A stretch of DNA of 64,000 bases from Romanomermis culicivorax. Taxonomy: Eukaryota > Nematoda > Enoplea > Mermithida > Mermithidae. A model generated the notes under the pieces. That model was not told the origin of the DNA, ran no database searches, and worked only from the letters and a program-made list of their open reading frames with translations. The translations under genes and the position numbers were made by a program. Of the stretch, positions 25,506 through 57,600 are shown piece by piece (position 1 is the stretch's first letter; the number at the start of each line of letters is the position of its first letter). The stretch is taken from contig CAWUHX010000082.1 in the NCBI GenBank assembly GCA_963922205.1, positions 310,001 through 374,000 of the forward strand. Reading direction: 5' to 3'.

Positions 25506-25509
25506 TGTG

Positions 25510-26086: not shown

Positions 26087-26090
26087 TAAT

Positions 26091-26112
26091 TTGGTGACCG
26101 TACCAGCTTGTC
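26091..26112 (+). other. Primer binding site of element A
   Basis: Four to five bases after the 5' LTR the sequence TTGGTGACCGTACCAGC begins. TGG is the usual start of a tRNA-complementary PBS. Element B has nearly the same sequence at the equivalent place. The priming tRNA was not identified. Confidence 0.65.
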
Positions 26113-26161
26113 TAAAGGTTGAGGAAATGCCGAAATTTGTGAAAAATCGAAAATCCGAAAA

Positions 26162-28707: not shown

Positions 28708-28980
28708 GCTGTAATAAACTTTCGCGAAAATTTCATCAGAATCGGAGACGTTCAACAAGAACTAAACCTAGTTTTGAAACCGATTGAAAAAGCACCCTAT
28801 AATGAAGTATTTTCAAATACTTCTACTGGACAAAGTCAAACGCAAATCATGAAAATCGACAGATCGCTACCGATTTTGAATATCTCATCATGCTAGGTAG
28901 AACCGAATTGTCAGACTTGGGTAAATGGGAAAGTCTTCCCTTTCACAAATGAAAGCTTCAAAAGCATTATAGTTCAACCC

Positions 28981-31900: not shown

Positions 31901-32150
31901 ATCTCATACTGTTGCTTAACAACAAAAAAGCAACTAAATCGACAAAGACTACATCGGACCCTTCGTAGTGGTCGGAAATTCCGAAATCTCGAAAAACGTC
32001 ATAACGATGGATAGTTTAGATTGTCCCGGACAATGTCAGAAAGTCTCACTTTCTCGCGTAAAGCCGTATTTGCCTCGAACGGCATTCGAAATTTTTAACG
32101 CGCAAGTCAGTGGTCCTCCACAACTGACTAGTCACGCCCTACTGCATTGA
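28981..32150 (+). pseudogene. pol: pol of element A: RT, RNase H, integrase
   Basis: The main frame 28981-31968 has RT (about residues 140-320: [44 protein letters not shown]). The RT active site reads YINDIIVF instead of Y-x-DD; the AAC codon is at 29866-29868. RNase H follows ([27 protein letters not shown]). Integrase has an HHCC zinc region ([16 protein letters not shown]) and the DDE residues in [18 protein letters not shown] and [10 protein letters not shown]. Close to 31925 the frame shifts into 31968-32150, which holds the C-terminal DNA-binding region. The Asp-to-Asn change alone should abolish RT activity. Confidence 0.9.
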
Positions 32151-32884
32151 GACTGAATTTTGTATTGTTCGTAAAATATTTATTTTCTACTTCGAAATCG
32201 ATTAATTTTTATATATTCCGTTTTCTGTTTCATCTTCACCATTTTGATCGTTTTGAACTAACGTGTAACAGTCTTTCACTGACTAAAGGTAGCGTATGGC
32301 TGATTTGCGAGCTGCGATAAAAATTCCGTTTCGAAACATGCTTTCGTGTAATCTACTGGGTGGCAAAGAAACCACGACATCGTAAACATTTCAAATTTTT
32401 CTACGTCTCATCCGTATCGCCGAGATTTCTTCTACAGTTTGGTATTGATTCGCTCAATACTTTTCGAATTTCGAGTTTCAAAGACTTCGCCAGAAGCTTT
32501 ATATACGTTTCTCTACGAAACTTAAAGCTTGCATCCGCTGCAAACTTTCCGATCTGATGCCTCCGTGGCTAAAGATTCCGTTTTAAAACACTGAGGCCTC
32601 CGCGGCTAAAGACTCCGGTCATCAGAATAAAGACTCCAGTCATCAGAATAAAGACTCTGGTCTTTCGGCTCGAAATCCAGCCTTGGCGATATGTTCTGTA
32701 GAAAAAAAATTTTTTTTTTTTGTTCCATATAGGAAAAAATGCCGCCGTTGTTTCAAAGTATCTGATAGCTGCCGAAGTCGAATGAAAAGGTCCGCCAAAG
32801 AAAGAAAGATCCTCTACATCCAAAGAAAAAAACCCTTCATTCCCGAAGAGAGAAAATTCGAATCGCTTGAGGCGATTTACATCG

Positions 32885-33522
32885 AAAGGGGGAGGAGTGT
32901 TGTGGTGTGCCGATCGACTACAGCAAGCTCGTCAGCTTTTCAAAGTGATTCGCAAGAATGCATTGTTTCGGAGCTCAAAGTTGTTCAAAGTTGTCCGAAG
33001 GTTTACAACATCAAAGATTACACTCGCAGCAAGATTGTGATAAAGTCAGTTCTTGTTTTGTTGGTCTTAGTGAGCAGTCGGTTTGTGATTGGCTCTGAGC
33101 ATCGCTAGTAAATCGAAAACTGAGTGTGTGTTCTAGGTTGAGTCAAACTATTTGGAAAATAGTTTGAGTAAGCGAGTGAAACTCCTAAGCGATTAAGTTA
33201 GTGTGACGCGAGTTTCGGCATCCGAAAACCTTTGGCGACCTGAGCGAAGATCCCTGGATAATTGACACAGCCCGACTCTCTACGAGCCACAAACACAACT
33301 CTCTACGATAATTGACACAACTCTCTACGAGCCCGTCAATCTCCTGCGTTCGACTATCGTTGCGTTGATTTCGTAAAACACTCAGAGTGTTTCGTCTATA
33401 GCGTTCCGCACGCTCTCCTACGTTCCGTACGTCTCTTCTAAACGCGCGATAAATCGTCGAGCTACACAGCTAAATTCTCTTCTGCGTCGTCATCTATTCT
33501 CTTCAATTTCTCACGCACGACA
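32885..33522 (+). repeat. Polypurine tract and 3' LTR of element A
   Basis: GAAAGGGGGAGGAG at 32884-32897 is the plus-strand primer site, directly followed by the 3' LTR (32898-33522, 625 bp). About 700 bp between the end of pol and the PPT is non-coding. Confidence 0.93.
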
Positions 33523-33526
33523 TGTG

Positions 33527-38416: not shown

Positions 38417-39771
38417 ATGGTAAGTTATGCGACGCAGTAGTCCTTCAAATTTCGAAAATTGAATGTTTAATCAATGTTTAGGCTTCCGATCCGAAAATTG
38501 AATTGGCTGCTTTAAAATCGAAAAAGTTACCTATCATTTTTATTGTTGGTAAGTTTTGTTGGTCTCTGTTATGCTAAAATTATCATTTTTCTATTTCTAA
38601 TGTTTTTTTCAATGACGTTGAATTTGTACCCAATCAGCTTTCATTCTCGGGAATGAGTTTTTAATGGAACTGCGTCTGATATTTCAGGCGGTCCCGGTTC
38701 TGGCAAAGGCACCCAATGTGAAAAACTGTCGCAAAAGTACCATTTTAAACATCTAAGTTCGGGTGATTTATTACGCGACGAAGTTAAAAGTGGCAAACCC
38801 CGTGGCGCTGAATTAGACAAAATGATGAAGGCCGGTCAACTTGTTCCATTGGTAAATTTCATTATTAGGTAACTAGAATAGTAGTAAATAAATATTGGGC
38901 CAAATTTTCAGGAAACTGTATTGGAATTGGTCAAAGAAGCTATGGTCAAAAGCAAAGACGCTAAAGGATTTTTGATCGATGGCTACCCGCGCGATGTCGT
39001 CCAAGGACAAAAATTTGAAGCCGAAGTAAGAAAGAAGATCCTTTTTTTCTATATATTGATTTTCTATCGGTGGTTTTCGTTTCTTTCATTATCTGAACAA
39101 ATTTTTCTATTACTATTACACGCACATCACATTTCACTTTCAGATTTGGGAATGCAGTTTAGTCGTATATTTCGACGTTTCGGACGCCACGATGACCAAA
39201 CGCTTATTGGGCCGCGCTATCACCAGCGGACGTATAGACGACAACGAAGAAACGATTAAAAAACGCTTGGTCACTTTTCATAGCCAAACAAAACCGGTGG
39301 TCGATTATTACGATCAAAAGAAGAAATTAGTCACGGTGAGAAAATTCCTGTTTTATATTTGAATGTCAGCTCTTACGTTATTTACTCAAATCAAAAAATT
39401 TAATCTGCTCCCAGGTTTTTCTTCGGATACCATAGGCCTCGGAAAACAAATCTAATTTTAAAGCTGAAAATCATATTTTTCTTTCTCAAAAGGTCGTCTT
39501 TTCTAATTGTAATTTGAAAAATATTATTCGAAAAAGTTTCATTGTATTCACACGATTAGGAAGATGGAATCGAAAATCTATCGATCATATTCATAGTTAT
39601 CTAAGTATAAAATATCTATTCATACGGAACCAAATTTTCGTTTATAAAATTTCAATTCACATTGTTTTCATTTCCTCTTTTCTCTTTTTGCAGATAAAAG
39701 CGGAAGGAACAGTAGAAGAAATTTTCAAGGAAGCCTGCGCTGCTGTTGATAAAAAACTAGGCTCTCATTAG
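38417..39771 (+). CDS. AK1: Adenylate kinase isoenzyme 1, six coding exons
   Basis: Cytosolic AK1 interconverts ATP + AMP and 2 ADP. Exons: 38417-38419 (only the ATG), 38482-38548, 38688-38851, 38912-39025, 39144-39335, 39694-39771 (TAG). All introns are GT-AG and all phases agree, giving 205 residues, close to the roughly 194 of vertebrate AK1. Visible motifs are the P-loop [11 protein letters not shown] at about residues 25-35, the AMP-binding [12 protein letters not shown], the signature [14 protein letters not shown], and the lid-region arginines in [22 protein letters not shown]. The protein ends [10 protein letters not shown]. The gene looks intact. A single-codon first exon is unusual but gives the standard start MASDPK. 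Confidence 0.97.
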
Positions 39772-39946: not shown

Positions 39947-40172
39947 TATTTTGTATCACTGGTGAGTTGTAGTAATATAAAAGTGGTAGTGATGGGCTGT
40001 AAAAGATTAGTGGAAGTAACGAACGTCGTGCGTCGTATTGCTAATTTTTATTTTTGGTTATCGAATGTCTTGGCACTACGAACATTTTCTTGAAATGCGT
40101 CCAAATAATAAATGTGCAGTCTGTCACGTGTCGCACGTCCGTACATCACCCCTTCGTACCGGTCGCAACACC

Positions 40173-40243
40173 GGCTCGGTAGTTCAAATGGAAGAACGCT
40201 GGACTTTAGTCGCAGAGACCCGGGTTCGAATCCTGGACGAGCA
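40173..40243 (+). tRNA. tRNA-like domain in the left LTR of the miniature element
   Basis: About 71 nt. It has an acceptor-like pairing GCTCG/CGAGC, an A box TAGTTCAAATGG matching TRGYNNARNNG, a D arm GTTC/GAAC, and a T arm with B box GGTTCGAATCC (40223-40233). The anticodon arm has mismatches at the loop-proximal pairs, and the loop CTTTAGT would place TTA at the anticodon. I treat it as a tRNA-derived pol III promoter module rather than a functional tRNA. Confidence 0.6.
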
Positions 40244-40446
40244 TTATTTTTCGAAAACGGTATTTGGCGATGGTTACGATGACAACGCGTTTACCCATTT
40301 ACGTGTCATGGCGAGGCTTGGATTGGTCCCACAATGGTGGGCCGCAGAACCTGCATCTTCAACGGACGAGGTCGTCCTTCTTTCAAGGGGGGGAATGTCA
40401 CGTGTCGCATGTCCGTACATCACCCCTTCGTACCAGTCGCAACACC

Positions 40447-40517
40447 GGCTCGGTAGTTCAAATGGAAGAAAGCTGGACTATAGTCGCAGAGACCCGGGTT
40501 CGAATCCCGGACAAGCA
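40447..40517 (+). tRNA. tRNA-like domain in the right LTR of the miniature element
   Basis: Same module as at 40173, with intact A and B boxes and a better paired T stem (CCGGG/CCCGG). The D arm is GTTC/GAAA and the loop CTATAGT. The acceptor pairing is weaker (ACAAGCA). Confidence 0.55.
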
Positions 40518-40582
40518 TTATTTTTCGAAAACGGTGTTTGGCGATGGTTACGATGACAACGCGTTTACCTATTTACATGTCA

Positions 40583-40799: not shown

Positions 40800-40803
40800 C
40801 AAG

Positions 40804-41621
40804 TGTAACGACCAGATTTGTGTGAAGCACTTTACTTTAAACAATAGCGTTACGGCGGGAACGGCAATAACGGAACGGGGGCGTGGGCGGTATTACGGGG
40901 CGATATGGCTGCAATGATCGACGGCTGCTTGAGACGTCGATACGACAATACGACAACGATAAACGCGGCGAGTACACACGGCTTAACTGCTTCCGAATAA
41001 AAATGAGACTCGCTCTCAGTATAAACACGCTTGCAAATACGAGGCGCGGAAGTCGAAAATTGAAAATTACAATAATAATAAAATCACGCTTTGCTTCTTT
41101 TTTTATACGACGTTTTTGGCCACTCCCTGGGCGTCGCCGGAGGTCGTGCTTCTGTCCATCTTCTTCCGCCAATCGTCGCTTCCTGCTATGCTTTTTATGC
41201 TTTCTTAGTTACACCTTTCTAATGTTTTCCTGGTACTGTATGCTTTTCGTGCTTCGCTTGCTTTCTACGGTGGGCTTAGCCACACCTTTGTGCTTCTGTG
41301 CATGCTTCCTGTATCGGTTTCCCTGTATACACATGTTTTGTGGGGCCGCCGCTACCGTTACACATGAGACTACTGTCTGGCGGGGCTTCTACGCATTTTA
41401 CTGTGTGCAGGTGTTGTTTACGATTTTTACGGGGGATTACGGTAGCTGTGGAATGTGTAGTTTAGTGTAGGTTCTAGGGGACCAGCTGCCGTTTGTGCAA
41501 ATTAATTGGGGCATCTTAATTGGGCTACCGGGGTGTGAATGGATCAAAATAAAGTACTTCACGTAATTTTATAGGAATGTTTGGGTGTGAATCCCAGACA
41601 CCCTTGAGACGATAAAATACG
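40804..41621 (-). repeat. Element B left (3') LTR, outer part
   Basis: Matches 52556-53380 of the right LTR. Homology stops after GATAAAATACG at 41621, where element C begins. The remainder of the LTR resumes at 45027-45065. 41 bp present in the right LTR (53381-53421) are missing here. Confidence 0.92.
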
Positions 41622-41645
41622 CCGCAAGCCGTCGCCTTCTACCGG

Positions 41646-42190
41646 TTGCGAACATGTCGTCAACAGCGAGATGAAACGGCGACGGAATTCCTTAGCCGCT
41701 TACGAACTTTACAAGCAGAATGCAAATACGAAAATTTTAACGCCGACGTAGACCTCGCTTATATGCTGGCTCAAAATTGTTATTCGCCGGAAGTACCAAA
41801 GCGGCTATTCTCATCGCCGATTGTCAGCCTCGATGCTTTTATCAAAATCATGCAAGCCGTCGAAAATGCAGAAAGTTCCACCGCCATCGTCCGCGGAGAA
41901 AAGCCAGTCAACGCTGTGCGAGAGGACCAATGACGCAATCGATCGCCAACCCAATCAAAGCGAACATCATCGCCGGCTTGAGCAATGCACAACTGCAGAG
42001 GCTGCGGATCGTCGCTACATGCTTACTTGTCCGATGAGTGCAAAGCGAGAGGTCAAAAGTGCAACAATTGCGGACGCATGGGACATTTCGGAAAATGGTG
42101 CGAACAACGTCGTCGTGAAAAATCAGCGTGGGGATTTAGCGAGTCGAAAGATCAAAACAAATCCGTGCGTCAGATCCACATGCGAAGTAT
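41646..42190 (+). pseudogene. gag: gag remnant of element C
   Basis: The frame 41646-41933 encodes the end of the capsid-like region (ETATEFLSRLRTLQAECKY, then NCYSPEVPKRL). The frame changes, and from 41985 the nucleocapsid follows with a zinc knuckle of C-x2-C-x4-H-x4-C type (CNNCGRMGHFGKWC). The start of gag is missing at the truncation point. Confidence 0.8.
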
Positions 42191-43655
42191 AGTGTCATCA
42201 TCATCAATGGCATACCAATGTACGTTCCATGTCACGCATCCGAATGGCAAAGATTGTTACCTCAATGGCATTGTCGATTCCGGTGCCAAAGCCTCATTGG
42301 TTCCATATGGTGCTTTTAAAAAGTGGATCAATGGGCACTTAGAACAATCGAATGCGGAATTGTACAACTTCGATGGGTCCCGTATCAGTGGTCTTCGCGG
42401 ACAATTTACAGCAACCGTCGAGTACAACAATCGAAGGGCGAAGTTACCGTTACTCGTTTTGGATACAATCAAAACGGCAATGTCGGGCGTGGACACGATC
42501 GAAGCTCTCCGTCTTGTAATCGATGGAAGCCCCCCTTTTATCAACGCCATCCAAAATAATAATATCGCCAATGCTCCGAAAATCGCAATGACATCGGATG
42601 AGCATTGCGTCGCAGTGACAGTGGATTTGCACTGTGATAATAATACCACCATTCAAGTCCAAGCAATCAAACCGCTCCCGAAAATAGTTGATGAACTTCC
42701 ACAACTTGTCGCAGACGGTATTGGCAAATTTCCCGATTACAAACATGGGATCATATTGTCGCAGAATGCTTTACCAGTCGCTCGAGCTGCCCGTCCGGTA
42801 CTGATTAGCCGACGTGCCGCAGTCGAAGCTGAAATCGAACAAATGGTCAAAGACGATATTTGGGAACAAGTCAACGGCCCGAGTCAATGGGCATTGAACC
42901 TTGTTACAGTTCCAAAAGCTGACCGCAAAATTCGAATTACAACCAACTTTTCGCCACTCAACAAATTCGTTATTCCCGATCGTCACCCATTGCCGCCTAT
43001 TGGGGATTTGTATTTACAACTTCAAGGTGCGACAATTTTTTCGAAGCTCGATTTAGCGAAGGGGTATTTCCACATCCAGTTGGCACCCGAATCTCACTCG
43101 CTTACGACAACAATTACGCCTTATGGTTTGTACCAATACAAACGCTTGCCGATGGGATTGACTGATGCCGTGTCCGTATTTCAACGTCTGGTCTCACAAA
43201 CATTGTTAGGCTGCGATGGTTGCATATCGTATCTCGACGATATATTGATATTTGGTTCAACATCGAATCAACACGACGATCGTTTACGAGTCGTTTTACA
43301 AAGGTTGGCCGACAAAGATTTCCGATTGAACATTGCGAAATGCCGCTTTTTGGTTGACAACGTCCCGTTCTTCGGACACCAAATATCAGCATCAGGAATC
43401 AAGCCGGATGCATCAAGCCTCGATGCGATTCGAAAAGCGCCGATTCCGAAATCGATCACTGATGTGCGAAGTTTCCTCGGTTCGATCAATTATTTACGTG
43501 AATCCTTGCCCCATTTAGCCAACCATGCCGAACGATTGCAACAATTGACCCGAACGTCAGAGCAATCGAAGTTCGAGTGGAATGACCAAAGCACCGCCGC
43601 ATTCGAAAAATTAAAGTCGTTACTTACGAACGATTTGCAATTGGCCTTCGAAAAT
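42190..43655 (+). pseudogene. pol: Protease and RT of element C
   Basis: The frame from 41985 runs on to 43763. The protease has GIVDSGAKASLVPYGAFKKW (DSG). RT has TNFSPLNKFVIPDRHPLPP, FSKLDLAKGYFHIQL and the intact catalytic YLDDILIF, then the thumb region with SFLGSINYLRESLPHLANHA. After about 43650 the RT frame runs on by chance into integrase DNA in the wrong frame, because the RNase H segment has been deleted. Confidence 0.88.
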
Positions 43656-44602
43656 CATTATTGGCGAAGTCACACAATGGACATCCCGGTATTGTTCGAG
43701 CAAAAGCGAAGTTACGTGAAACATATTGGTGGCCTCGAATTACCTCCGATATTGAAGAAATGATTCGACATTGTCAAGGATGTCAAAATTCCGTGAAATC
43801 AAATCCAAAAACCAATATTCCAACCGATCCGCTGCCGTTACCTACAACGCCATGGGAAAAGATGGCGATCGATGTTACCGGTCCATTTGCAATGACAAAT
43901 TATCAAAATCGATTCGCGATTGTAGTCATTGATTACCTGTCTGGCTACCCCGAAGTGCGATTGTGTCCCGATCACAATGTTACAACGACAATCGAATTTT
44001 TGACTGAATTATTTGCTCGTTACGGCAATCCCTCGATTATTGTCTCCGACAATGGGCCTGAGTATAGATCAACTGCGTTCGAAGAATTTTTGTCGAGCCA
44101 CGATATTTTGCATTATCAAACCCCAGTTTACCATCCACAAGCGAATGGCAAGGTTGAAGTATTCAATCGATCGTTGAAATTTCACGCTCAAACGTTAGCC
44201 GCTTCGCAAACACCTTTTCCGATGGGCATCACCCAACTATTAGCACGATATCGAGCAGAACGTCCAGCACTCCATATATTGTCACCGGCGGAAATTATGT
44301 TTAATCGACGCCCGCGATTAGCATTCAAACCCGGAATCACGGAACAAGAAGCCGCCGGAATAAAAGAACCAGCAAAGAAAAAGAAACCGAAGGGACGACA
44401 CATCCATTTTAAAGAAGAGGGAGCACTGGAACTCGATCCGATTAATCAACGCCCAGCGCCGCTTTACAAAATTGGTGACGAAGTCCGCGTTAAAAGACCA
44501 TCGACCATGATACCCAAAGGACAATCCCTGTATTCCGACGTCCTCACTGTCGTCAAAGTGTTGGGCGATTACGTATTCGAACTACCCAATGGTAATACAT
44601 AG
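43650..44602 (+). CDS. Integrase of element C
   Basis: The frame starts just after the deletion junction with LLAKSHNGHPGIVRAK, the zinc HH part, then CQGCQ (CC). The catalytic core has MAIDVTGPFAM (Asp), IIVSDNGPEYRS (Asp) and ANGKVEVFNRSL (Glu). A Lys-rich linker and a C-terminal domain ending ELPNGNT follow. Catalytic residues are intact, but without a start or an intact polyprotein it cannot be made normally. Confidence 0.88.
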
Positions 44603-44751
44603 AGCGCTCATCGTATGCGGCCTTATTATCCACCGGCAACTATAAACTTACCGTTGAACACTGCCAAACCCCTAATCAAGCATCGACGTCGCTCTACGCG
44701 ATCAACCCGTGGCTGACCGCCATGTCGATATTCTCCCCAATGAAACAATAT

Positions 44752-45026
44752 TAAAAAGGGGACAGTGATATGAACGCGGGTTATGTAAATTTGTGTAGTA
44801 TTTTTGCGTATACATAGCTTCCTTTATTGGCGTCACTTTTTCTCGCCTGTTTTTGTGTTATGCAAATAGATGGCCTATATATAGTCCGGCCATCTTTGTG
44901 TTTCTCATTGTATCCTTTCGCCCTTCATTGATCATTGACTGTTTATTATTGTCGTCCGAATAAAGTGTATTATTTACGATAGTTGGTCACCAGTATTTGA
45001 ATTTGCATACTCGACCACACTTATCA
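44752..45026 (+). repeat. PPT and 3' LTR of element C (261 bp)
   Basis: AAAAAGGGGACAG ends at 44765. The LTR 44766-45026 begins TGATATGAAC and ends CTTATCA, giving the inverted termini TGATA/TATCA. It contains AATAAAG at about 44961 as a likely polyadenylation signal. Confidence 0.85.
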
Positions 45027-45065
45027 GCTATATATTTACAGTACTGCTTTAGCAGGTAGGTTACA

Positions 45066-45078
45066 TTTCCCTCCTTCC
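45066..45078 (-). other. Polypurine tract of element B
   Basis: On the minus strand GGAAGGAGGGAAA directly precedes TGTAAC of the 3' LTR, as expected for plus-strand priming. Confidence 0.85.
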
Positions 45079-45096
45079 AGAGTTGAACGTCCTCGT

Positions 45097-46305
45097 TCAA
45101 GGCTTCCGAGGGTGAAGAGGGGTGGGGGCAGTTTCGATAGGTGCTTTCCGAAGGTAGAAAGGGGTTGTCTCCTTGACATGTACCATAAATGTAATATTCT
45201 TATGGGGGTGTTTGAGTGTAACCTTGAGGTACATGAAATTTGTAACTGTATAGGGCCCGTTTTGGCGAGGGAGGAATTTTGGAGTCAACCCTTGTTTACA
45301 GGAATGGTTTTTGTAAAGAATAAGATCACCTGCCTTGTAATGTATGTTCTGAGCATGCTTGTTATACTGACGGGTATAGTGGTCTTGGGCTTTTTGTAAA
45401 CTTTTCTGCATGGTTGAGAGTGCCTCTGTAAAATGCGATTTTACACGAAGGGGGTAATCATCTAAATCAACCATGTACGACCTGAGGAAAAAATTTAAGG
45501 TTGCATCTGATGGCAGATTAGCTTGCCTACCGTGGAGTAATTCAAATGGGGGATACGAGGTACTATCATTCTTATGAATGTTGATCGAAAAAACGGCATA
45601 GGGCAGATAAGTATCCCAATCAGTGTGATTTGAATTGATGTACACGCAGATATGGGTGGCTAAAGTTTGGTTGCAACGCTCAACTTCCCCATTGGCAATG
45701 GGATGGTATGGGGTGGTATGAATTTTCTGGGTATTGCATAAGCTAGTGATTCGTGAGAAGAGATTGGATACAAAATCGGAGCCACGATCACAATGGATGA
45801 TTTTTGGGGACCCATGACGGCAAACAATTTTGGTTACGAATAATTTGGCGATAGTGGCTGCAGTGATGTCAGGGGTCGGGAATGCCTCCACATACTTGGT
45901 AAAATAATCGATGAAAATGACAATGAATCGGTTGCCATCTCGAGTGAGGGGTAACGGCCCCATGCAATCAACACCGACTCTATCAAATGGGCCAGTCGGC
46001 TGAATCGGTACTAGATTCCCATGTACTTTGTGCGGGAGGGCTTTTTGTGTCTGGCATGGGTGGCAAGTTTTGCAGTACCGTTTGATATCATGGCTCATTT
46101 GGGGCCAAAAATATTTTTGTCTGAGCAAGTGTAAAGTTTTCCGGGCAGCAAAATGACCTGTGAATTTGCTGTCATGATGTGAGGCGATGAGATGCTGGAC
46201 TTGCGACTTGGGAATGTATAGTTTTGCCTGTTTGTCAACTATACGGAAGTGGATGTTTTGATGCACTGCAAATTTGATCATAGTAAGGGGGGTGTTTTTT
46301 GGCGA
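45097..46305 (-). CDS. Integrase of element B
   Basis: Zinc region HHDSKFTGHFAARKT and CKTCHPCQ. Catalytic residues are in GVDCMGPLPL (Asp), IIHCDRGSDFVSNLF (Asp) and ANGEVERCNQTL (Glu). A C-terminal domain with YKAGDLILYKNHSCKQGL follows. The frame differs from RT-RNase H by one shift at about 46290-46312. All catalytic residues are present. It ends 32 bp before the 3' LTR, so no gene fits downstream, where errantiviruses normally carry env. Confidence 0.9.
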   Translation of the reverse strand, partial: SPKNTPLTMIKFAVHQNIHFRIVDKQAKLYIPKSQVQHLIASHHDSKFTGHFAARKTLHLLRQKYFWPQMSHDIKRYCKTCHPCQTQKALPHKVHGNLVPIQPTGPFDRVGVDCMGPLPLTRDGNRFIVIFIDYFTKYVEAFPTPDITAATIAKLFVTKIVCRHGSPKIIHCDRGSDFVSNLFSRITSLCNTQKIHTTPYHPIANGEVERCNQTLATHICVYINSNHTDWDTYLPYAVFSINIHKNDSTSYPPFELLHGRQANLPSDATLNFFLRSYMVDLDDYPLRVKSHFTEALSTMQKSLQKAQDHYTRQYNKHAQNIHYKAGDLILYKNHSCKQGLTPKFLPRQNGPYTVTNFMYLKVTLKHPHKNITFMVHVKETTPFYLRKAPIETAPTPLHPRKP

Positions 46306-46307
46306 TT

Positions 46308-47780
46308 TTAGCTACTTTTGACAGTTGGGTCAGTGCGTTGGAGTTCGGCAAAATTTTTCTGTTGCTCTTCTTGTTCAGTTGCTTCGGTCTCAAGAACAGA
46401 ATTTATGGTTGATATTTCAGGGCGGGTTTCTAGTTGCTCAATATCAAAGGATTGCTTCGCTGTCTGTGAGGGGAATCGAGAAACAGCATCTGCATTGCGG
46501 TTAGCAGTGCCTTTCTTAGGTCGAATGTCGAGTTGAATACCGGAGAGGGCTATTCCCCAACGGGCAATGGGAGGGGACGGGTTTTCCTTTTGTAAGACTG
46601 CCTGAACTGCTGTATGGTCAGTGTGTACAATAACATGTTGCTGGAAGAGGTAGGGGCGGAAATACTTGACAAACTCTACTACTGCAAGGGTTTCCAACTC
46701 AGTTATGGGGTAGCTGCGTTCTGTGGGTTTTAGTGTGCGGCTCCCAAAAGCAATGGGGCGATCCTGACCTTTACTGTCTAGCTGACTGAGAATGGTGCCG
46801 ATTCCGAGTTTTGAGGCGTCAGTTTGCAGAATAAACGGTTTGGTGAAGTCTGGATGCTGCAATATTGGGGCATGAATTAACAATTCTTTTAGTTTAGTGA
46901 ATGCGTTTTGCTGTTCAGGGCCCCAGGAAACTTCGGAATTCTTTTTGAGTAGGGCTGTTAGGGGGCTAGATATTTGGGAGCAGTTCAGAATGAACCTACA
47001 ATAATAAGAGGGTAGACCAAGGAATGATTTGACTTCTTTTGAGCTTTTGGGTGTGGGTATGTCATAAATGGACTGTACCTTATGGGGATCTGGTGAAATG
47101 CCTTGCTGAGAAAGGACGTGGCCTATGTATTGGACTTGGGGCTGACAGAATTTGCATTTGTGTATATTTAGTTTAAGGCCTGCTTGTGAGAATCGGGCAA
47201 GGATAGTGTCTAAACGTTCCAGCATTTGGGCATGGGAGTCTGCGAAAACTAAAACATTGTCGAGATAGACAAGGCATGTGTTCCATTGTAATCCCGAAAG
47301 AATAACATCCATTAGCCTTTGGAATGTGGCTGGGGCGTTGGTGAGACTGAAGGGGAGGTAATTGAATTGATACTGGCCGGCTGAGCAATTAAAGGCCGTT
47401 TTTTCTCTGTCTGCTTGTGCTATGGGGATGGTATAATATGCATTGGATTGATCGAGGGACGTAAAATATTTCATTCCACGTAGGGTGTCTAGAATTCCGT
47501 CTATGTGGGGCAAGGGGTATCTATCTTTTTTGGTGACTTTATTGAGACCTCTAAAATCAATGCATAAACGATGGCCTCCATCTTTTTTGGGGACTAAAAC
47601 TGCGTTGGTACACCATGGGCAATTACTTTGGCTTATGACACCTGCTGCTGCGAGTTGCTCAACTTCTGCTTGTATGATTTGCTTTTCTTTTGGGGAAGTC
47701 CGATAAAGGTGCCTGCGTACAGGTTGGGAGCCATTGGTGTCATATGTATGTGAAACGAGGGTGGTTCTACCTATGTCCAT
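46308..47780 (-). pseudogene. pol: RT and RNase H of element B (substituted active site)
   Basis: RT motifs: KKDGGHRLCIDFRGLNKVT, FTSLDQSNAYYTIPI, FSLTNAPATFQRLM. The active site is YLDNVLVF instead of YLDD; the AAT codon is at 47256-47258. Note SLDQSNAYY at motif A. RNase H is recognisable by FILQTDASKLGIGTILSQ and HTDHTAVQAVLQ. A TAA at 47781-47783 separates it from the protease in the same frame. Confidence 0.9.
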
Positions 47781-48800
47781 TTAGGATTTAGCATATAATG
47801 TAGGATACTTCGATAGGGCGCGTAGGAGTTGCATTTTCTCGGTTTCTGTGAGGTCACTGGAGGTTAAATTAACATTTTCTTTTAACCATGTGAATGTATC
47901 AAAACCGTTGGGCTGGTTTTGCATGGAAGGGGTTACATTAGCAGGAGCATTTTGTTTCGGGATATAACAGGAGACTGTACTAATGCATGTTCCAGGGTAA
48001 AGAATTTGGGCTGTTTCTTGTGTGTTTAGGACCGATATGCATATGCGACTGTTTTGGTTTTCAGAGACACAGGCTGCAAAATGGACTTTGGGATTCTGTT
48101 TGGGTTTCAGAGTAAACTCAAGCTGCTTAACTTGTAGGTACGATTTGGGCAAGGGGACAGTAAATTCAGTGACTGTACGGGGTGGTAATTCTAATTTTTC
48201 GTCTAGATAGGTTCCACCACGGGTCAAAAGGGGGCTATATTCTAGGCCATCACAGGGTAGTATGACATTACCAAACTTCACCTGAGATTTTTGATTGTTG
48301 ATAGTGTATTCCAAAAATCGACTGAGAAAGTTTTTGCTAAGAAGGATGTCTGCTGTGCAATCTTTTTGGACATGGACCATTATTGTTTCCTGGATAGTTT
48401 GGGCTGTTACTGTGACAAAAGTAGTCCCTACAAAATGAATCGGGAGATTATTTGCTGCTTTTGCTTGGACTAGCGGGGGTTTCATGTCTAACTGTAAAAA
48501 TGGAGCGATCCGTGAATCAATGAGTGAGTAGACTGCACCAGTGTCAATCATGCCTTTTGTGATTAATTTGCCGTTAAGTGTGATTGGAATATGAGGAGTA
48601 TGCTTCTCGGGTACATTTTGGGGTGGCTTGGTTGATGCAGATTGATGAATTTGATTAATGAGTTCAATTGCAGGAGTTCGGGGGGTATCAATATCGACAA
48701 GGACGTATTTCTGCTGGGTTTGTGCCACACGACGATTAGCTAATACTAAGAGAGCATGGCCGAATGATGGCCGAATGGCCTCATGTAAATGTCTGTTGTT
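47781..48800 (-). CDS. pro: Aspartic protease region of element B
   Basis: The active site lies in GMIDTGAVYSLIDSRIAP, with the second-half region DILLSKNFLSRFLEY. The frame is open from directly behind the stop of the envelope ORF (TAA, 48801-48803), in the same frame, so there is no separate upstream signal. No ATG is placed at the start: the open stretch begins HLHEAIRPSFGHALL before VAQTQQKYVLVDID. It precedes RT in the same frame. Confidence 0.85.
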   Translation of the reverse strand, partial: NNRHLHEAIRPSFGHALLVLANRRVAQTQQKYVLVDIDTPRTPAIELINQIHQSASTKPPQNVPEKHTPHIPITLNGKLITKGMIDTGAVYSLIDSRIAPFLQLDMKPPLVQAKAANNLPIHFVGTTFVTVTAQTIQETIMVHVQKDCTADILLSKNFLSRFLEYTINNQKSQVKFGNVILPCDGLEYSPLLTRGGTYLDEKLELPPRTVTEFTVPLPKSYLQVKQLEFTLKPKQNPKVHFAACVSENQNSRICISVLNTQETAQILYPGTCISTVSCYIPKQNAPANVTPSMQNQPNGFDTFTWLKENVNLTSSDLTETEKMQLLRALSKYPTLYAKS

Positions 48801-50501
48801 TTATGGTATTTCGTATGCATGTTCATTTGTGGCATGATGCTTGGGGGAGGGGAAGTATTTTCGAAGAATGAGAAAAGAATAAAAGACACCTGCAATAACT
48901 ACAGTAATAACAGCTAGATTAATAATGACTTGCAGGGGTCCTTTGAGCAAATTGTTTAATCCCTCCGTGAGGCTCTGGGTGGTACCCGTTATTACATGTT
49001 CTATGCCTTGACTGGCGCCAGAGAGGGTATTTCGGAATGCTTGGCCAGTGCCTGAGATCATATTGTAAACTGTATCTGAGTTAAGGGACATTTGGGCGGT
49101 GTAATTGACGAGTTTTTTAACAATGTTTTCGAATGTGTGAGTTTTGTAAATGTATTGTTTCAAAAAGAGTAAGTTGGTTGAAATAGTTGCAAGTTGATCA
49201 TGAAAAATGGCGGGTGTATTAAAATGGAAAAGGGAAAAATTTTGGTTCCAGAATATTTCTAAGGGTAAATTTGTGACATGCGGGGATCCTGTTTCACTGA
49301 CCCATGTATTATTCTGTTTGTAGAGGGCTACATGCATATGATGGCAGTCAACTGTTTGTGAAAAAGGGGTCAAATCGTTGCCTCCTGGACTCGAAAACAT
49401 GAGCTCGGTTCCCTAGAATGGGCAAAAGTTTGTAGCATGTTTGGTTGATTTTATGGTTGTAAAAGACTTTAGATGCATTTACCTGCTTGCAGTGCCAGAC
49501 TGTGAGGGCTTCTCCTGTGAATTCTGCTATGATGTCGGTTTGTTGTAGGAATGCACGTACTCCAAGGGTTGCATGAAGGCGTAAAATTTGCCATACCAGA
49601 TCAAGGTGATGCTGTGCCTGTCTGCATAATTCACTCCATACGTTTTTGAAATATTGAATTTCGAATTCCTGGATTTTGTCTGCTAGATAGTTTAGTTTCG
49701 CGTTAATGGGTTCAAAATCATCAAAATCGTAGAGTGTAGTATGGGTTTCTTGGTTTTTGGGGTTAAAAATGTGTTACGATGTGGGGTGCTTTTGTCTAAT
49801 TGTACAATAATGCCTTGTTCGGTTAGAATGCTGTCTTGGATTTCTGGGCAATTAGGGTTCGAAAAGAGTGTGTTTTTAACCGAGAATGCACCTTGTAGCT
49901 CTTCTATTATCATGTGGGTTTGTGTGAGTTTGATGGGATGTGTGTTTTTGTATTCGAAAGGGCATAAGTTTTCGAATGCTGTTTCATTCCAGATAATGGA
50001 TCCGTCAGCTGTGACACAATGACCTGATGTCGGTTTGCATGACCCCAGGTCACCTAATGTACCTGTCATAGATTTTCCATTCCATGATGCTATTTGTCCT
50101 ATTTCTATGATGACGTTAGTGACCGAGGTACAGTGGTCTGTGCAACACCATGTGTATTTTACGCTTAGGGAGTTATTTGTTGACCAAAATCCGGGTTGGG
50201 TTTTGTATAATTTTTGACCGTTGTGTTCTTTGTCTATAACGATTGCCTTACAAACCTGTGGGGTTAGATTTTGCATTTTGGTTTGGTCGAAGACAATACT
50301 TTTTGAGCCAAAAAATCTTGTATTAGTACAAATTTTGCGTTTGCGAACACTGCATTTGTATGCGTCTGTTATGTGAGGTTTAGTGGAGGGGATATAGATT
50401 TTTCCGAATGTCTGTACCGGTTTGTCTACTGTGGAAGGGGACATGCATGATACAAGTTTTGGTATGCTGACTGAGTGACCGCTCAATGAAGTTCCACACA
50501 T
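48801..50501 (-). pseudogene. env: Envelope-like glycoprotein of element B, between gag and protease (broken)
   Basis: A type I membrane glycoprotein is suggested. The ORF 50501-49692 is rich in Cys and Asn-glycosylation sites (for example CCTDHC, CKPTSGHC and an IIWNETAFENLCPF stretch). The ORF 49400-48801 is more Cys-poor, has a single membrane span at about 48940-48870 (LAVITVVIAGVFYSFLIL) and a short tail. Both are in one frame. The segment between them is open in another frame, so two compensating indels, near 49692-49745 and near 49370-49430, break the copy. The Cys and Trp pattern faintly recalls glycoproteins of negative-strand RNA viruses such as chuviruses; I cannot confirm a family. 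Its location upstream of protease is the notable point. Confidence 0.75.
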
Positions 50502-51098
50502 CTAAAATTGGGCACTACACGATGTGGGGATTATTATGCATAAAAATATACAATACAACGGCCAATATAGTGTTTTAGTGGAGGCGGCAGGGCACTGTAT
50601 GTTTTTGTTCTGGCCAGTTTGGCATGGCGGTTTTTGATGTTGTTCAGGTTCATGCTGAGGGGGTGGCCGGTTTCCAATCTGAACGGTCTGTAAAATTTTA
50701 GAAGTTGAGTCATGGGATAGGGTTTGGACTTGCTTACTTGCGGGGGTCGGTAGCAGTGTTTGGCGGGGTTGGAATTGGTAGGGTTCGGGGGTCAGGCCGT
50801 GTAAAAGAGACAATAAGTTGCGGCCTGCTTTCGATGGAGTTTCGGGGGCGGTGGGCGACTTGGTGTCTTGCTTGAGGGGGATCTTGTGGCCTGCGGGGAT
50901 GGTGGGCGGCGATTTTTCGATTTTTGTGGCTTCAGGCATGAGGGGTGGTGACATGGCGCACCAATCTGGTATGCCCAGGTCGAGGATGTATTTGTCACTA
51001 CGGCGGTGGGTAGTGGGCATAATGGTTCCTAAAGTAGTCTGAGGGCCGTTAGTTATGGCGGGTAATTTTGAGTAAAATGTGGGGTCATCAATGTCCAT
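50502..51098 (-). CDS. Proline-rich leader with terminal hydrophobic segment, upstream of the envelope
   Basis: 198 residues, starting MDIDDPTFYSKL and rich in Pro, Gln, Lys and Thr. It ends in a hydrophobic stretch, YWPLYCIFLCIIIPTSCSA, that looks like a signal peptide or signal anchor. It is followed by a TAG (50502-50504) immediately next to an in-frame ATG that opens the envelope ORF. The ATG overlaps the end of gag by about 45 nt in another frame. Most likely this is the N-terminal part of the envelope precursor, with the TAG as a nonsense mutation. A separate small protein with stop-start coupling is an alternative. Confidence 0.65.
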   Translation of the reverse strand: MDIDDPTFYSKLPAITNGPQTTLGTIMPTTHRRSDKYILDLGIPDWCAMSPPLMPEATKIEKSPPTIPAGHKIPLKQDTKSPTAPETPSKAGRNLLSLLHGLTPEPYQFQPRQTLLPTPASKQVQTLSHDSTSKILQTVQIGNRPPPQHEPEQHQKPPCQTGQNKNIQCPAASTKTLYWPLYCIFLCIIIPTSCSAQF

Positions 51099-52312
51099 GA
51101 GGGGTTGGGGTTGCCTGTACTCAATGCAATTTTGAATATTACGACTCCGTTGATTTGGACAGTACCTGCTTGTATGACTTCCCAGCTTGCATATAAAACA
51201 TTGGAAATTTGAGTAGGATTTGAAAGGCAGTTATCAGATCTATGTCCTGTTTGGGAGCAGTGGATGCATCGGCTTTTACAATTGCGTGTACTGTGATTAT
51301 TACGGAAACAAATTTCACATGATTTTCAGGTGCCTACTGATTTACAATTATGAGCTATGTGTCCAATTGGTCCACACTGGAAGCACGTGGGTTGCCTAGG
51401 GGTGGTATGGTTCCTGTAAGCATTATTCCTACTGTAAGTGTTGTTACTGAAATTGTTGTAGCTACTCTGTTGTGGGGGTTGGTGTTCTTGTTTGATCTGC
51501 AATTGTAAATCTTTCACTTGTTGTTCTAACTGATGCAAAAGATCCTGTTGGTCTGTATTTTTGGTTAGGGAAAAGATGGGTTCGGGTTTTGGGGGTATAA
51601 AGGGAAGGGCGTTAGATTTTAACTCATTTCTAAGGATTTGCTGTTCAATGTAAGCTGCTTCATCTGACATTTCTTTTAGATTTGCGAACCTTCTATACTT
51701 AATTGCTTCCCTGATTTCGTTTTGCATGCCTTCTACAAAGAGGGGTTCTATGATCATTTCTCGTGCATCTGTGTTAAAGTTAGGGTAGGCGAGGGTTGTG
51801 AGGTGTTCTAGATCAAACAAGAATTCAGTTACTGTTTCTGATCGCTTTTGTTTTCTCTCGCGTAAGAATTGTTGATGTAGCTCATTATCTCTATTGTTTG
51901 GGAAAAATGCCTGTAGTGCGACTTTATACTGCTCGTATGTGTGGGGAGGGTTTTCGGAATTGGCTAAGCTTTTGAATTTTGCTAACGCGGCTCCTCCTAA
52001 ATGAATTTCTAAACATGCCAATTTTAACTGTACGTCTGTATCTTTCATGCCTTGGAGTGCCATGAATTGTTCTAATCTTTTGTTCCATTCACCAAAATGT
52101 TGGGTCACGCCGCCCGTGAATACTGTAGATTTCATGTAGAAATTATTTGCCATGTTATTAGGAATGTTTGCTGTTCTTAGATCGTCTATTAGGGTAGGGT
52201 TTACTGTATTCTGATTCAATTGTGTGCGCAGAGTACGAAAATGTTCTGAAAATAGATCGTTTATCTGTTCTCTGACAATTTCTCCTAAATGATCTTGCGT
52301 TTGGTGGGTCAT
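51053..52312 (-). pseudogene. gag: gag of element B (one internal stop)
   Basis: 419 codons in one frame with a TGA at 51326-51328. The capsid-like part has FTGGVTQHFGEWNKRLEQFM and LFDLEHLTTLAYPNFNTDAR, with a Gln-rich coiled segment (QQDLLHQLEQQVKDLQLQIK). Three CCHC zinc knuckles follow: CFQCGPIGHIAHNC before the TGA, CEICFRNNHSTRNC and CIHCSQTGHRSDNC after it. Three knuckles are unusual for Ty3/gypsy Gag, which typically has one or two. The last codons overlap the leader ORF. Confidence 0.88.
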
Positions 52313-52324
52313 TCTTGGTTTACA

Positions 52325-52555
52325 CTAGGATTTCTGCTTAAATGCTTCAATTTTTGCTTCACGCTGTATTCGTTTAAATATATCGCTTAATGTTTCATTG
52401 GAGGGGATTTCCAGTTTGCTTTCTACGAATACTGTCTTACTGTAGGACATGACTACTACTGTATTATCTAATGCTTCTAAATCCCCGGATAAGAGTATAC
52501 CTAATTGGGGGCAGGGAGTTCCAGTGGTTAACAGTACGGTACAGTCACCAAAATA
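52325..52555 (-). other. Leader of element B with PBS and a short upstream ORF
   Basis: Directly after the 5' LTR the minus strand reads TATTTTGGTGACTGTACC, a PBS-like sequence nearly identical to that of element A. A short ORF with an ATG at about 52450 (MSYSKTVFVESKLEIP...) ends at TAG 52325-52327, in frame with and just before the gag ATG. It could be a lost N-terminal extension of Gag or an upstream ORF. Confidence 0.6.
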
Positions 52556-53460
52556 TGTAAGGACCAGATTTGTGTGAAGCACTTTACTTTGACCAATGGT
52601 GTTATGGCTGGAATGGCTATAACGGAACGGGGGCGCGGGCGGTTATACCGGGCGATATGGCTACAATGATCGATGGCTGCTTGAGATGTCGATACGACAA
52701 TACGACAAAGATAAATGATAAACGTGGCGAGTACACACGGCTTAACTGCTTCCGAATAAAAATGTGACTCGCTCTCAGTATAAAAACGCTTGCAAATAGG
52801 GGGCGGGGAAGTCGAAAATTGAAAATTACAATAATAATAAAATCAAGCTTTGCTTCTCTTTTTATACGACGTTTTTGGCCACTCCCTGGGCGTGGCGGGA
52901 GGTCGTTCTTCTGTCCATCTTCTTCCGCCAATCGTCGCTTCCTACTACGCTTTTTATGCTTTCTTAGTTACGCCTTTCTAATGCTTTCCTGGTACTGTAT
53001 GCCTTTTGTGCTTCGCTTGCTTTCTACGGTGGGCTTAGCCACACCTTTGTGCTTCTGTGCATGCTTCCTGTATCAGTTTCCCTGTATACACATGTTTTGT
53101 GGGGCCGCCGCTACCGTTACACTTGAGACTACTGTCTGGCGGGGCTTCTACATATTTTACTGTGTGCAGGTGTTGTTTACGATTTTTAGGGGGGATTACG
53201 GTAGCTGTGGAATGTGTAGTTTAGTGTAGGTTCTAGGGGACCAGCTGCCGTTTGTGCAAATTAATTGGGGCATCTTAATTGGGCTACCGGGGTGTGAACG
53301 GATCAAAATAAAGTACTTCACGTAATTTTATAGGAATGTTTGGGTGTGAATCCCAGACACCCTCGAGACGATAAAATACGAAAATGAATAATATTTAATA
53401 AATGTTTATCACATACAGTATGCTATATATTTACAGTACTGCTTTAGCAGGTACGTTACA
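52556..53460 (-). repeat. Right (5') LTR of element B (905 bp)
   Basis: Complete LTR, TGTAAG...GTTACA on the plus strand. It matches the split left LTR closely, including the GGGGATTACGGTAGCTGTGG block, and drives minus-strand transcription. Plus-strand reading frames in it are shadows. Confidence 0.93.
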
Positions 53461-53464
53461 CAAG

Positions 53465-54616: not shown

Positions 54617-57600
54617 TCAAACGCTCCGGGCCGCTGCTCTATCCGATGGAATTCTGTTCCTTTTCCAAGGCGACTCTTCTGTTTCTCCATTCGCCGACGT
54701 GACGTTGTTTTCTTCCTGATCTTTGACGTCATGCTGAGGATCAACTTGGAAAAATTTCCGGAATTCGATCAGAGCTGCCGCTGCCGCAGTCGACGGGGAG
54801 TGGCGCGTGGCGCCCGACAGTTGAGGCTTGGAAATTGCTGTGTGAGTTGCGGTGGTTCCTTGATTGTTAGACGTCGATTTGGGCGACAAAAGTAACGAAC
54901 TGGTGGACGCAGACGGCTGGATTGTAGACGTGGGAATTTCCGTACCGCCGTTCACCGTCGTCGTCGGAGATGTTGCAGCTGTCGCTTGCGCCATTTTACC
55001 GCAGTCGACCCGGTGCCGGTTCCAATCTTTGTGTTGGCAGAAGACGCCGCAATAACGGGCGCAGCCGCAGCCACTGCACGTTTGGCCAGCTTTGCGACCG
55101 CAGTTCCAACAATTCTGGAGAGAAAAGACGAAACATCAAAGTTTATTTTTCATGTGGTATTGGGTCGTCAGGAAATAGCCGATTAGAGCAGGCTTAAGGC
55201 CCTGTCATACTTCACCGCGCGGTACCGCCTTTGAAGTATGAATAGGTTTTTGTAAATTTTGCGGCGCCGCGCGGCGCCCCATCAGGTTTCAACTGAACCA
55301 ATACACATTTTTTGAGAAGAGCAAAATCCAAAAGTAAAAAAGCGGCGCCGTGCGGCGACAAGCCACCGCGCGGTACCGCGCAGCGCCGCGCGGCGCCACC
55401 TGTTAGTATGAATAGGACAACCGGCACCGCGCGGTGAAGTATGACAGGGCCTCTACTCTATACTACAGTCTGTCTTTCTTTGATTGTAAATGAAAAATTC
55501 GAACGCAAGTACTCATTTTTTTACCATTTCCTGCTGAACCGTTTGTCGTTTGTCGCATAGGACTAGACGTTTGTGAGCCTAGTCAATAACGGTTACTTTT
55601 TTGAGCAAAAAACTCAGCAGTAAAAGTTTTTTGTAACCGACTTTAAGACGGTACTAATTGTTTTTTGTCTTACAACTTACAAGCAAAAAAACACGATATA
55701 TAAAAAGTGATATAAGGTTTCGATTCAGATCGCATAGGCATAGAGTAGGATAGGAGGAAAGTTGTAATCGATCAAATATACCCTGCTCTCAACAAAAATT
55801 TGCCAAAAGCCGCGTTTCCTTTTTCAAGGAAATTTTTAACGCTCGCATACCCGTCCGTGAATTTTAAGTCTCTCAATTCTAATGCATGCTTCTGAAACAT
55901 GTCATCACAAACAATGAAAATTCCTTGAACAGTTCTTGTTTCGTTTATTCCTCATTGGCGCACTCTTGATCTTTTCGATGAAAAATAACCATAGGCAACT
56001 TTTCAGAAAAATGTGAATTAATGAAAACTTTTTTGCTACAAACATTAAGCTGTACTATTTTTATAGAATAAAGTGAAAATTGGCACGAAAAAGCGGTCGT
56101 TCAATGTAATATGCCTGCACGTCGAATTGCACTCTTAAATGAAATTTCACAGGCCATCCTGGGGAACGCAACCTGGATGCTCTAGATAGACTGAATGAGG
56201 TACTACAAGCTTCAGCATACATGTAGTAGCACTGAACCGTACAGGTAATATGGTTTAGCACAAACGCGCATTCAAGTATATCAAGGGCGTGCTGGGGCCA
56301 ATGGGTCTGCACGGAACGTTCCCGAGGAGGATTAAACGGCAATCGGATTAAACGGCGCCGGGCCGGGTCTGTCGTATCTCCTCGGAAACGTTCCGTGCAG
56401 ACCCATTGGCCCCGGCTATTGTGTCTCACTTTGGCGCCCGTCTTACTGATGCCCGTCTCACTTTGACGCCCATCTCACTTTGGCGCCCGTCTCATTTTGG
56501 CGTCCAACGTCGTAGGCGCCAAAGTGAGACTGTTGTCTTACTTTGGCGCCCGTCTCACTTTAGCGCTCGTCTCACTTCGGCGCCCATTATAATGACTTTT
56601 CTTGGATGTCCTAACTTGGCGTCCATCTCACATTGGCGCCCGTCTCACTTTGGCGCCTGTCTCACTTTGGCGCCCTATCATAGTCTGCTTTTCGGCATTC
56701 ACGCTGATCATTTATTTGGGTGAATCCCCAATCCACGAAGGTCCTGTTTTCCCAAAATTCCTCATTCCCCGATGAATGCTTCAAAGCTTTTTCTCGAAAG
56801 TCCCTATTCCTCAAAATTGTCAAAGCCCGTTTCCCTAAAAGTAGACGAATAGACGAAGGCTATTTTTAAATTGCATTTTGTAAATTGCTAATTTTCCTTG
56901 AGAACATTGTAAATTGTAGGATTTCACACCAAATTCGCAGGGTTATAAAAATTAGTGAAAAATTAGAAAAAAATAAAGTCATTTCACGTTTGATACGCTT
57001 AGCTTCAACTTCGGATCGGGTAAGGCGCACAAGGTGGATTGTGACCGTGATCCGGATTTGACACGAACTGTAGCATGACCTATGGGATTCCCATGACTGT
57101 TGCAAGAAACGCATTCGAAGCACATGACTTCACCATCGATGTCCAATCGTTTAACTTTTTTCTTTTTGAACAAATAAAAAAGATCCGGATTAACTGTACT
57201 TTCACGAACCAACATTGACATTTGACAATACAAAGACACGATAAAGCCGGCTTCCTTGAAATCAGCCATTTTAGTTTCATGAAAAGTGTTTTTATTGGAT
57301 AAAGTTTAGCAGGGTAACTGATTGTTATATTTCACCATTTAGAGAGCGAGAGAGAGAGAGAGAGAGATATTCAGGGTGACCTGAGCTATTTATCATGCAA
57401 AACTGCGCGTAAAATTTGCACGGATGAAGACACGTCGCTTGTTTATTAGGACATACAATGCGCCAAAGTGAGACGGGCGCCAAAGTGAGACGCAGCTTGG
57501 GCGCCAAAGTGAGACGAGGCGCCAAAATGAGATGGGCGCCAAAGTGAGACGGGCGCCAAAGTGAGACTGTACCGTTTAATCCCACCACAGCTCCGCCAAC

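What the first reader, a model, noticed from the sequence alone, without database searches (positions are those of the whole stretch)
45066..52555. LTR provirus with envelope-like gene between gag and pol
Seen directly: on the minus strand, inside one LTR pair with one PBS, one PPT and a shared CAAG target duplication, the order is gag (three CCHC knuckles), Pro-rich leader with hydrophobic end, Cys-rich glycoprotein with one C-terminal membrane span, protease, RT, RNase H, integrase. Integrase ends 32 bp before the 3' LTR, so no env can sit downstream. Known env-bearing Ty3/gypsy, Belpao and retroviral genomes place env after pol. This arrangement would be a new genome plan, or a recombinant that still integrated as a unit.
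Basis: partly seen in the sequence, partly recalled or inferred. Interest (0 to 1): 0.92.

Follow-up and report, generated by a model that had tools for sequence, protein, structure and literature searches.

The report
Retrovirus-like element with Env before Pol
A decayed retrovirus-like element carries its cell-entry protein before, rather than after, its replication enzymes, and a related sequence in public data shows the entry protein joined directly to the enzymes, so this looks like an inherited but rare genome plan rather than an accident.

Summary
Window 45066-52555 is the internal region between two LTRs (94% alike) with TG..CA ends and a CAAG duplication; the minus-strand order is gag, leader, envelope, PR, RT, RNase H, IN, and IN stops 31 nt before the LTR. 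The envelope is a mononegavirus/chuvirus-type fusion glycoprotein (Pfam PF24664, E 8e-9 in piece B). It is not a one-off: database protein P0125 is one uninterrupted frame Env-membrane span-PR-RT-RNase H, colinear with the three window Env pieces and sharing 16 of 16 aligned cysteines; P0123 has a membrane span just before PR in one frame through IN. Both fall with the window in a nine-row RT clade supported 100/100. Env-Pol fusion is thus probably ancestral to a compact Ty3/Gypsy clade. Not wholly new: planarian Burro elements were reported in 2019 with a mononegavirus-like env in frame between gag and pol (PMC6431247). The window copy is broken in gag, env and pol. Other copies in its own genome could not be searched. 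Likely mechanism, inferred: Pol made as the cytosolic tail of a membrane-anchored Env.

The parts
52556..53460 (-). 5' LTR (905 bp), TGTA..TACA ends
   Evidence: direct repeat with 40804-45065
40804..45065 (-). 3' LTR, split by inserted DNA (3,357 bp longer than the 5' LTR; holds a + strand gypsy fragment)
40800..40803 (.). target site duplication CAAG (left)
53461..53464 (.). target site duplication CAAG (right)
52516..52555 (-). primer-binding-site region, TATTT then TGGTGACTGTACC; tRNA not identified
45066..45078 (-). polypurine tract GGAAGGAGGGAAA
51329..52324 (-). gag, open frame to TGA at 51326-51328; Retrotrans_gag (E 5e-5, 23.9 bits, just under the 24.1-bit cut-off) and first CCHC knuckle
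51056..51325 (-). gag frame after the TGA, CCHC knuckles 2 and 3
50505..51230 (-). Pro-rich leader frame ending in a signal-peptide-like hydrophobic stretch; frame is -1 relative to gag; followed by TAG
49695..50501 (-). Env piece A (N-terminal ectodomain), 36% identical to P0125 residues 11-247, 12 of 12 aligned Cys shared
49351..49773 (-). Env piece B, Monjiviricetes_fusion PF24664 positions 298-411, E 8.1e-9; 50% identical to P0125 269-368
48804..49412 (-). Env piece C, PF24664 positions 408-460 (E 0.0017, under the cut-off), membrane span and short tail; 40.5% identical to P0125 371-565
47784..48800 (-). aspartic protease (gag-asp_proteas E 9e-6, 26.6 bits, under the 28.2-bit cut-off) and PR-RT linker; first Met of the frame at residue 84, catalytic DTG at 86
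46311..47780 (-). reverse transcriptase and RNase H
   Evidence: RVT_1 E 9.8e-34, RT_RNaseH_2 E 1.8e-37; best PDB match Ty3 Gag-Pol E 4.4e-84
45100..46311 (-). integrase (H2C2 zinc domain, rve core, GPY/F-type motif)

Best explanation
A decayed provirus of a compact Ty3/Gypsy (Metaviridae-type) clade whose inherited genome plan is gag, then one long frame leader/signal-Env-membrane span-PR-RT-RNase H-IN. Shown: the order in the window, the LTR unit, the Env family, and uninterrupted Env-PR-RT-RNase H (P0125) and membrane span-PR-RT-RNase H-IN (P0123) frames in two relatives of the same RT clade. Inferred: the polyprotein enters the secretory membrane through the hydrophobic end of the leader, so that Env faces out and Pol hangs on the cytosolic side as the tail of Env; Gag gathers it at the membrane, and PR cuts Pol free in the particle. 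Env would allow spread between cells. Not shown: how the Env-Pol frame is reached from gag (a -1 shift, splicing or another route).
For: LTRs, CAAG duplication, no room after IN. PF24664 hits in consecutive profile positions in Env pieces B and C. P0125: PF24664 E 4.8e-17 at 272-437, PR 635-726, RT 968-1128, RNase H to 1318 in one frame; colinear matches of the three Env pieces, protease and RT pieces, 16 of 16 aligned Cys shared. P0123: membrane span at 37-55, PR 100-190, RT, RNase H, IN in one frame. Of 75 retrieved proteins with over 250 residues before RT, 7 had a hydrophobic peak at the threshold used; the two strongest are P0125 (2.67) and P0123 (2.35), both before PR; the other 5 have best scores of 1.74-1.98 and I judge them, by eye, not to be membrane spans. 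RT clade of nine rows 100/100. In the window, no Met precedes PR in its frame until two residues before DTG, which disfavours independent initiation at an ATG.
Against: The window copy has a stop between Env and Pol, so fusion is not seen in this copy and the stop could be a real recoding site. P0125 and P0123 are unnamed database proteins (source tag jgi) whose contigs I could not read as DNA; P0125 ends before IN, P0123 lacks the Env ectodomain, gag was seen in neither. P0123's segment before PR was placed by its membrane span and position only; it has no BLAST match to the window Env pieces. No slippery heptamer in gag phase in 51056-51325 (0 of 3 heptamers). The leader's hydrophobic end does not reach the 19-residue threshold and no signal-peptide predictor was run. 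PDB sequence search of P0125 residues 1-551 gave no match at E 1. Fold model of Env piece A useless (pLDDT 29.8). A protein search with Env piece B found nothing (5 candidates, none at E 0.01).
Confidence: 0.8

Rival explanations
1. Compact relative of the planarian Burro elements: the same ancestral env capture between gag and PR, with Burro having grown giant later. (Compatible with the best explanation; it differs on origin and novelty.)
For: Same position and same broad Env source (mononegavirus-like fusion glycoprotein) are described for Burro.
Against: Internal region 7.5 kb against up to 25 kb; no BIR, MATH, ankyrin, BCL2 or dUTPase domain in the Pfam scan of nine pieces. No Burro sequence was at hand, so common descent was not tested.
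Confidence: 0.35
2. Env and Pol are made separately: the stop at 48801-48803 is real, Env comes from a spliced or recoded message, and the fusion in P0125 and P0123 is a lineage-specific change.
For: TAA present in the window copy; leader frame is -1 relative to gag.
Against: P0125, which branches first in the clade, and P0123 have no stop there; no Met before PR in the window frame until residue 84; this copy has other stops and frame changes that look like damage.
Confidence: 0.15
3. One-off rearrangement or nested capture of an endogenous glycoprotein fragment in this copy.
For: The locus is rich in nested elements.
Against: Independent relative with the same order in one frame.
Confidence: 0.03
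4. The putative env is a Gag extension.
For: Only its place after gag.
Against: PF24664 match above the curated cut-off (34.4 against 27 bits), membrane span, 16 shared Cys.
Confidence: 0.01

Closest known systems
Burro / GYPSM1 giant gypsy-like retrotransposons of planarians (PMC6431247, section 7 read)
   Same: Env between gag and PR; env similar to mononegavirus fusion glycoproteins; [quoted passage not shown]
   Different: Up to 25 kb internal region and a 4,873-aa ORF1 with extra domains (BIR, MATH, ankyrin, BCL2, dUTPase-like) not found here by Pfam; Gag is the N-terminus of the same ORF1, whereas here gag and leader/Env lie in different frames
Errantivirus (gypsy and kin), insect Ty3/Gypsy with env
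   Same: Ty3/Gypsy with an acquired envelope gene
   Different: Env after pol (recalled) and of another source (a likely baculovirus origin is stated in a passage of PMC12440569)
Anakin, BEL/Pao with chuvirus glycoprotein (PMC7642597, passages)
   Same: Envelope of negative-strand RNA virus type captured by an LTR element
   Different: BEL/Pao pol; [quoted passage not shown]
Lokiretroviruses (as described in PMC9040795, passages)
   Same: Env similar to Mononegavirales fusion glycoproteins
   Different: Retrovirus relatives with dual RNase H

Membership tests
Ty3/Gypsy (Metaviridae) LTR element | Pol order PR-RT-RNase H-IN | tested here: met
Ty3/Gypsy (Metaviridae) LTR element | RT closest to Ty3 among solved structures | tested here: met
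   Ty3 Gag-Pol 7q5b E 4.4e-84, best of 205 distinct sequences matched (60 shown)
Ty3/Gypsy (Metaviridae) LTR element | GPY/F motif in IN, CCHC Gag, TG..CA LTRs | tested here: met
Ty3/Gypsy (Metaviridae) LTR element | RT placed in a named Ty3/Gypsy clade | not testable with these tools
   tree has few named rows and no reference clade set
Monjiviricetes-type fusion glycoprotein | Pfam PF24664 above curated cut-off | tested here: met
   34.4 bits (cut-off 27) for Env piece B, 61.6 bits for P0125; piece C 16.8 bits, under it, and piece A no match
Monjiviricetes-type fusion glycoprotein | class III fold | tested here: inconclusive
   only sub-threshold Glycoprotein_B hints (E 0.51 to a solved gB), no PDB sequence match for P0125, model of piece A failed
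Burro giant gypsy element | env between gag and PR | tested here: met
   Burro
Burro giant gypsy element | giant internal region with BIR, MATH, ankyrin, BCL2 or dUTPase-like domains | tested here: not met
   7,490-bp internal region; Pfam scan of nine pieces
Burro giant gypsy element | RT or Env descent shared with Burro | not testable with these tools
   no Burro sequence retrieved
Errantivirus | env downstream of pol | tested here: not met
   31 nt between IN stop and LTR
Retroviridae | dual RNase H (tether plus new domain) | tested here: inconclusive
   Pfam found one RNase H region after RT; no dedicated test made

The most novel reading that the evidence does not exclude
A retrovirus-like clade in which Pol is made as the cytosolic tail of a membrane-anchored class III Env, so that the enzymes are packaged through Env and the membrane rather than as Gag-Pol; protease release would then also trim the Env tail, linking particle maturation to Env.
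Probability: 0.4. Interest if true: 0.88.

Novelty: new variant of a known kind. Interest (0 to 1): 0.66.

Why it matters
Retroviruses and env-bearing LTR elements are taught as gag-pol-env, with Pol delivered by Gag-Pol fusion (foamy viruses excepted; recalled). A compact clade with Env fused in front of Pol suggests that the order reported for the giant Burro elements is not a quirk of gigantism, gives a tractable-size example, and raises a testable question: can the polymerase reach the particle as part of the envelope protein? It is also a case of negative-strand RNA virus type glycoprotein in a Ty3/Gypsy element; a 2023 survey (PMC10084718, passages) reported no clear evidence of Jingchuvirales glycoprotein capture by Gypsy elements in arthropods.

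Tried and rejected
Gag extension: rejected by PF24664 and the membrane span. One-off rearrangement: rejected by P0125. IMG/VR matches L001-L007 to Env piece B (37% over 58 residues, 34.7 bits) were judged chance: of the eight window pieces only piece B matched them at E 0.01 and P0125's Env did not match them at E 0.1. IMG/VR scans with the RT piece, RT alignment A2, P0125 and P0123 gave no relative. The one prokaryote genome scan with A2 gave nine contigs with 33-42% RT identity, lower than the clade's 51-64%, but not put in the tree; P0125's Env gave one weak match there (L010, E 0.03), taken as chance. Protein search with Env piece B: nothing. Slippery-site search: 0 of 3 heptamers in phase. 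Fold of Env piece A failed, so no fold search was run and the second fold job was not used. NCBIfam gave nothing for the three Env pieces; PHROGs nothing for gag. Host not identified: Rfam and ARAGORN gave one odd tRNA-like hit only. The protein searches list the best 120 of 2,291 and 3,767 matches; the 227 distinct proteins so listed are all that I could examine. In the tree I used 72 rows: 9 close rows (eight clade members plus P0004), 10 rows chosen mostly because they bear a name, 50 of the other proteins with an RT alignment over 380 residues (25 in rank order, 25 at random), and 3 window rows; the rest of the 227 were left out. Literature: 10 answered searches; six papers opened (PMC12440569, PMC10309623, PMC6431247, PMC9040795, PMC10084718, PMC7642597), one section of PMC6431247 read and otherwise outline or passages only; the rest were seen as listings. 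Only Burro showed env between gag and pol in what I saw; most subscription papers are not held.
Full report
Observation. Window 45066-52555 is bounded by two LTRs in direct repeat: 52556-53460 (905 bp) and 40804-45065, the latter longer by 3,357 bp because other DNA is inserted in it. The outer ends are TG..CA and CAAG stands on both outer sides. LTR divergence is 41 mismatches in 818 compared sites, so this is probably not a fresh insertion. A purine tract precedes the 3' LTR and a TGG-starting stretch follows the 5' LTR by 5 nt; I could not name the tRNA.

Gene order on the minus strand. Gag (Retrotrans_gag E 5e-5, 23.9 bits, just under the cut-off of 24.1; three CCHC knuckles with a TGA between the first and the second), a Pro-rich leader frame with a hydrophobic end (13-residue mean 2.2 on the Kyte-Doolittle scale, but no peak at the 19-residue threshold), three Env pieces, protease, RT, RNase H, integrase. 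IN stops 31 nt before the LTR. The leader frame, which is also that of Env pieces A and C, PR and RT, stands at -1 relative to gag, but no slippery heptamer lies in gag phase in the stretch examined (0 of 3).

What the Env is. Env piece B matches Pfam Monjiviricetes_fusion at positions 298-411 (34.4 bits, cut-off 27) and piece C carries on at 408-460 (16.8 bits, under the cut-off), as expected of one protein split by a frame change. Sub-threshold matches of piece B to Glycoprotein_B and the bornavirus G family point the same way, as does a non-significant match to a solved gB (E 0.51). Piece C has one strong membrane span near its C-terminus. Piece A has no Pfam match at E 1. The fold itself was not shown: the model of piece A has pLDDT 29.8 and P0125's Env (residues 1-551) finds no PDB sequence at E 1.

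Is it a family trait? The RT piece found close relatives, all unnamed entries with source tags jgi or lgn (I take these for metagenome or read-archive assemblies), and a second search with P0003's RT reached longer proteins. P0125 (1,424 aa, contig of 6,278 bp) is one frame with PF24664 at 272-437 (E 4.8e-17), protease at 635-726, RT at 968-1128 and RNase H to 1318. The window pieces match it in order: A 11-247 (36%), B 269-368 (50%), C 371-565 (40.5%), protease piece 575-904 (30%), RT from 909 (52%). All 16 cysteines of the aligned Env stretches are shared; 200 residue shuffles of P0125's first 600 residues reach at most 25.0 bits against 118-183 observed. P0123 (1,270 aa, contig of 7,955 bp) begins with a stretch holding a membrane span (37-55) followed in one frame by PR, RT, RNase H and IN; its short N-terminal part shows no BLAST match to the window Env pieces, so its reading as an Env end rests on span and position. 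Of 75 retrieved proteins with more than 250 residues before RT, seven have a hydrophobic peak at the threshold; the other five peaks are weaker (1.74-1.98) and I judge them not to be spans. The RT tree of 72 rows unites the window with P0001, P0002, P0003, P0006, P0067, P0123, P0125 and P0142 at 100/100, with P0125 branching first at weaker support (90/46 for the other eight). Only the window, P0125 and P0123 tell us about Env position; the other six rows do not reach upstream of PR.

How it works. Because P0125 lacks a stop between Env and PR, and because in the window the frame after the TAA has no Met until two residues before the catalytic DTG, the simplest reading is an Env-Pol polyprotein. 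With a signal-like stretch before Env and one membrane span after it, type I topology would put Pol on the cytosolic side. Packaging of Pol through Env is my inference; so is the claim that the stops in the window copy are damage. The copy is broken in gag, Env, PR/RT and RT/IN and has YLDN in the RT box, so it is unlikely to make a working virus.

What is known. The review of giant transposons (PMC6431247; [quoted passage not shown] Our element shares that order and broad Env source, but is compact and lacks Burro's extra domains in the Pfam scan. Common descent with Burro was not tested. Other captures of such glycoproteins, Anakin and lokiretroviruses, are in other lineages. My searches showed no further case in what I saw, within an open-access library only.

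Limits. The host was not identified, the window's own genome could not be searched, and the relatives are known only as proteins. The gag part of the plan is shown only in the window copy.

Noticed in passing
25509-33523: A second Ty3/Gypsy element on the + strand with LTR-like repeats 97-99% alike (25509-26087 and 32897-33523) and gag, PR, RT, RNase H, IN frames; RT 37% identical to the finding's; P0125's Env matches nothing there at E 0.1.
   Followed up: partly
41752-44599: A + strand gypsy fragment (zinc knuckle, PR, RT, IN frames) nested in the 3' LTR of the finding's element.
   Followed up: partly
40173-40244: tRNA-like hit with an odd TTA anticodon, inside the first of two 187-bp repeat copies 274 bp apart (40122-40308, 40396-40582).
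   Followed up: no
56421-57568: Arrays of a short unit near GGCGCCAAAGTGAGACG in opposite orientations, about 0.8-1 kb apart.
   Followed up: no
14376-16127 and 18590-19531: Frames resembling non-LTR retrotransposon reverse transcriptase (recalled resemblance from the frames, not searched).
   Followed up: no
38888-39768 and 54620-55135: Possible host gene fragments resembling adenylate kinase and a MYND zinc finger protein (recalled resemblance from the frames, not searched), which would suggest an animal host.
   Followed up: no
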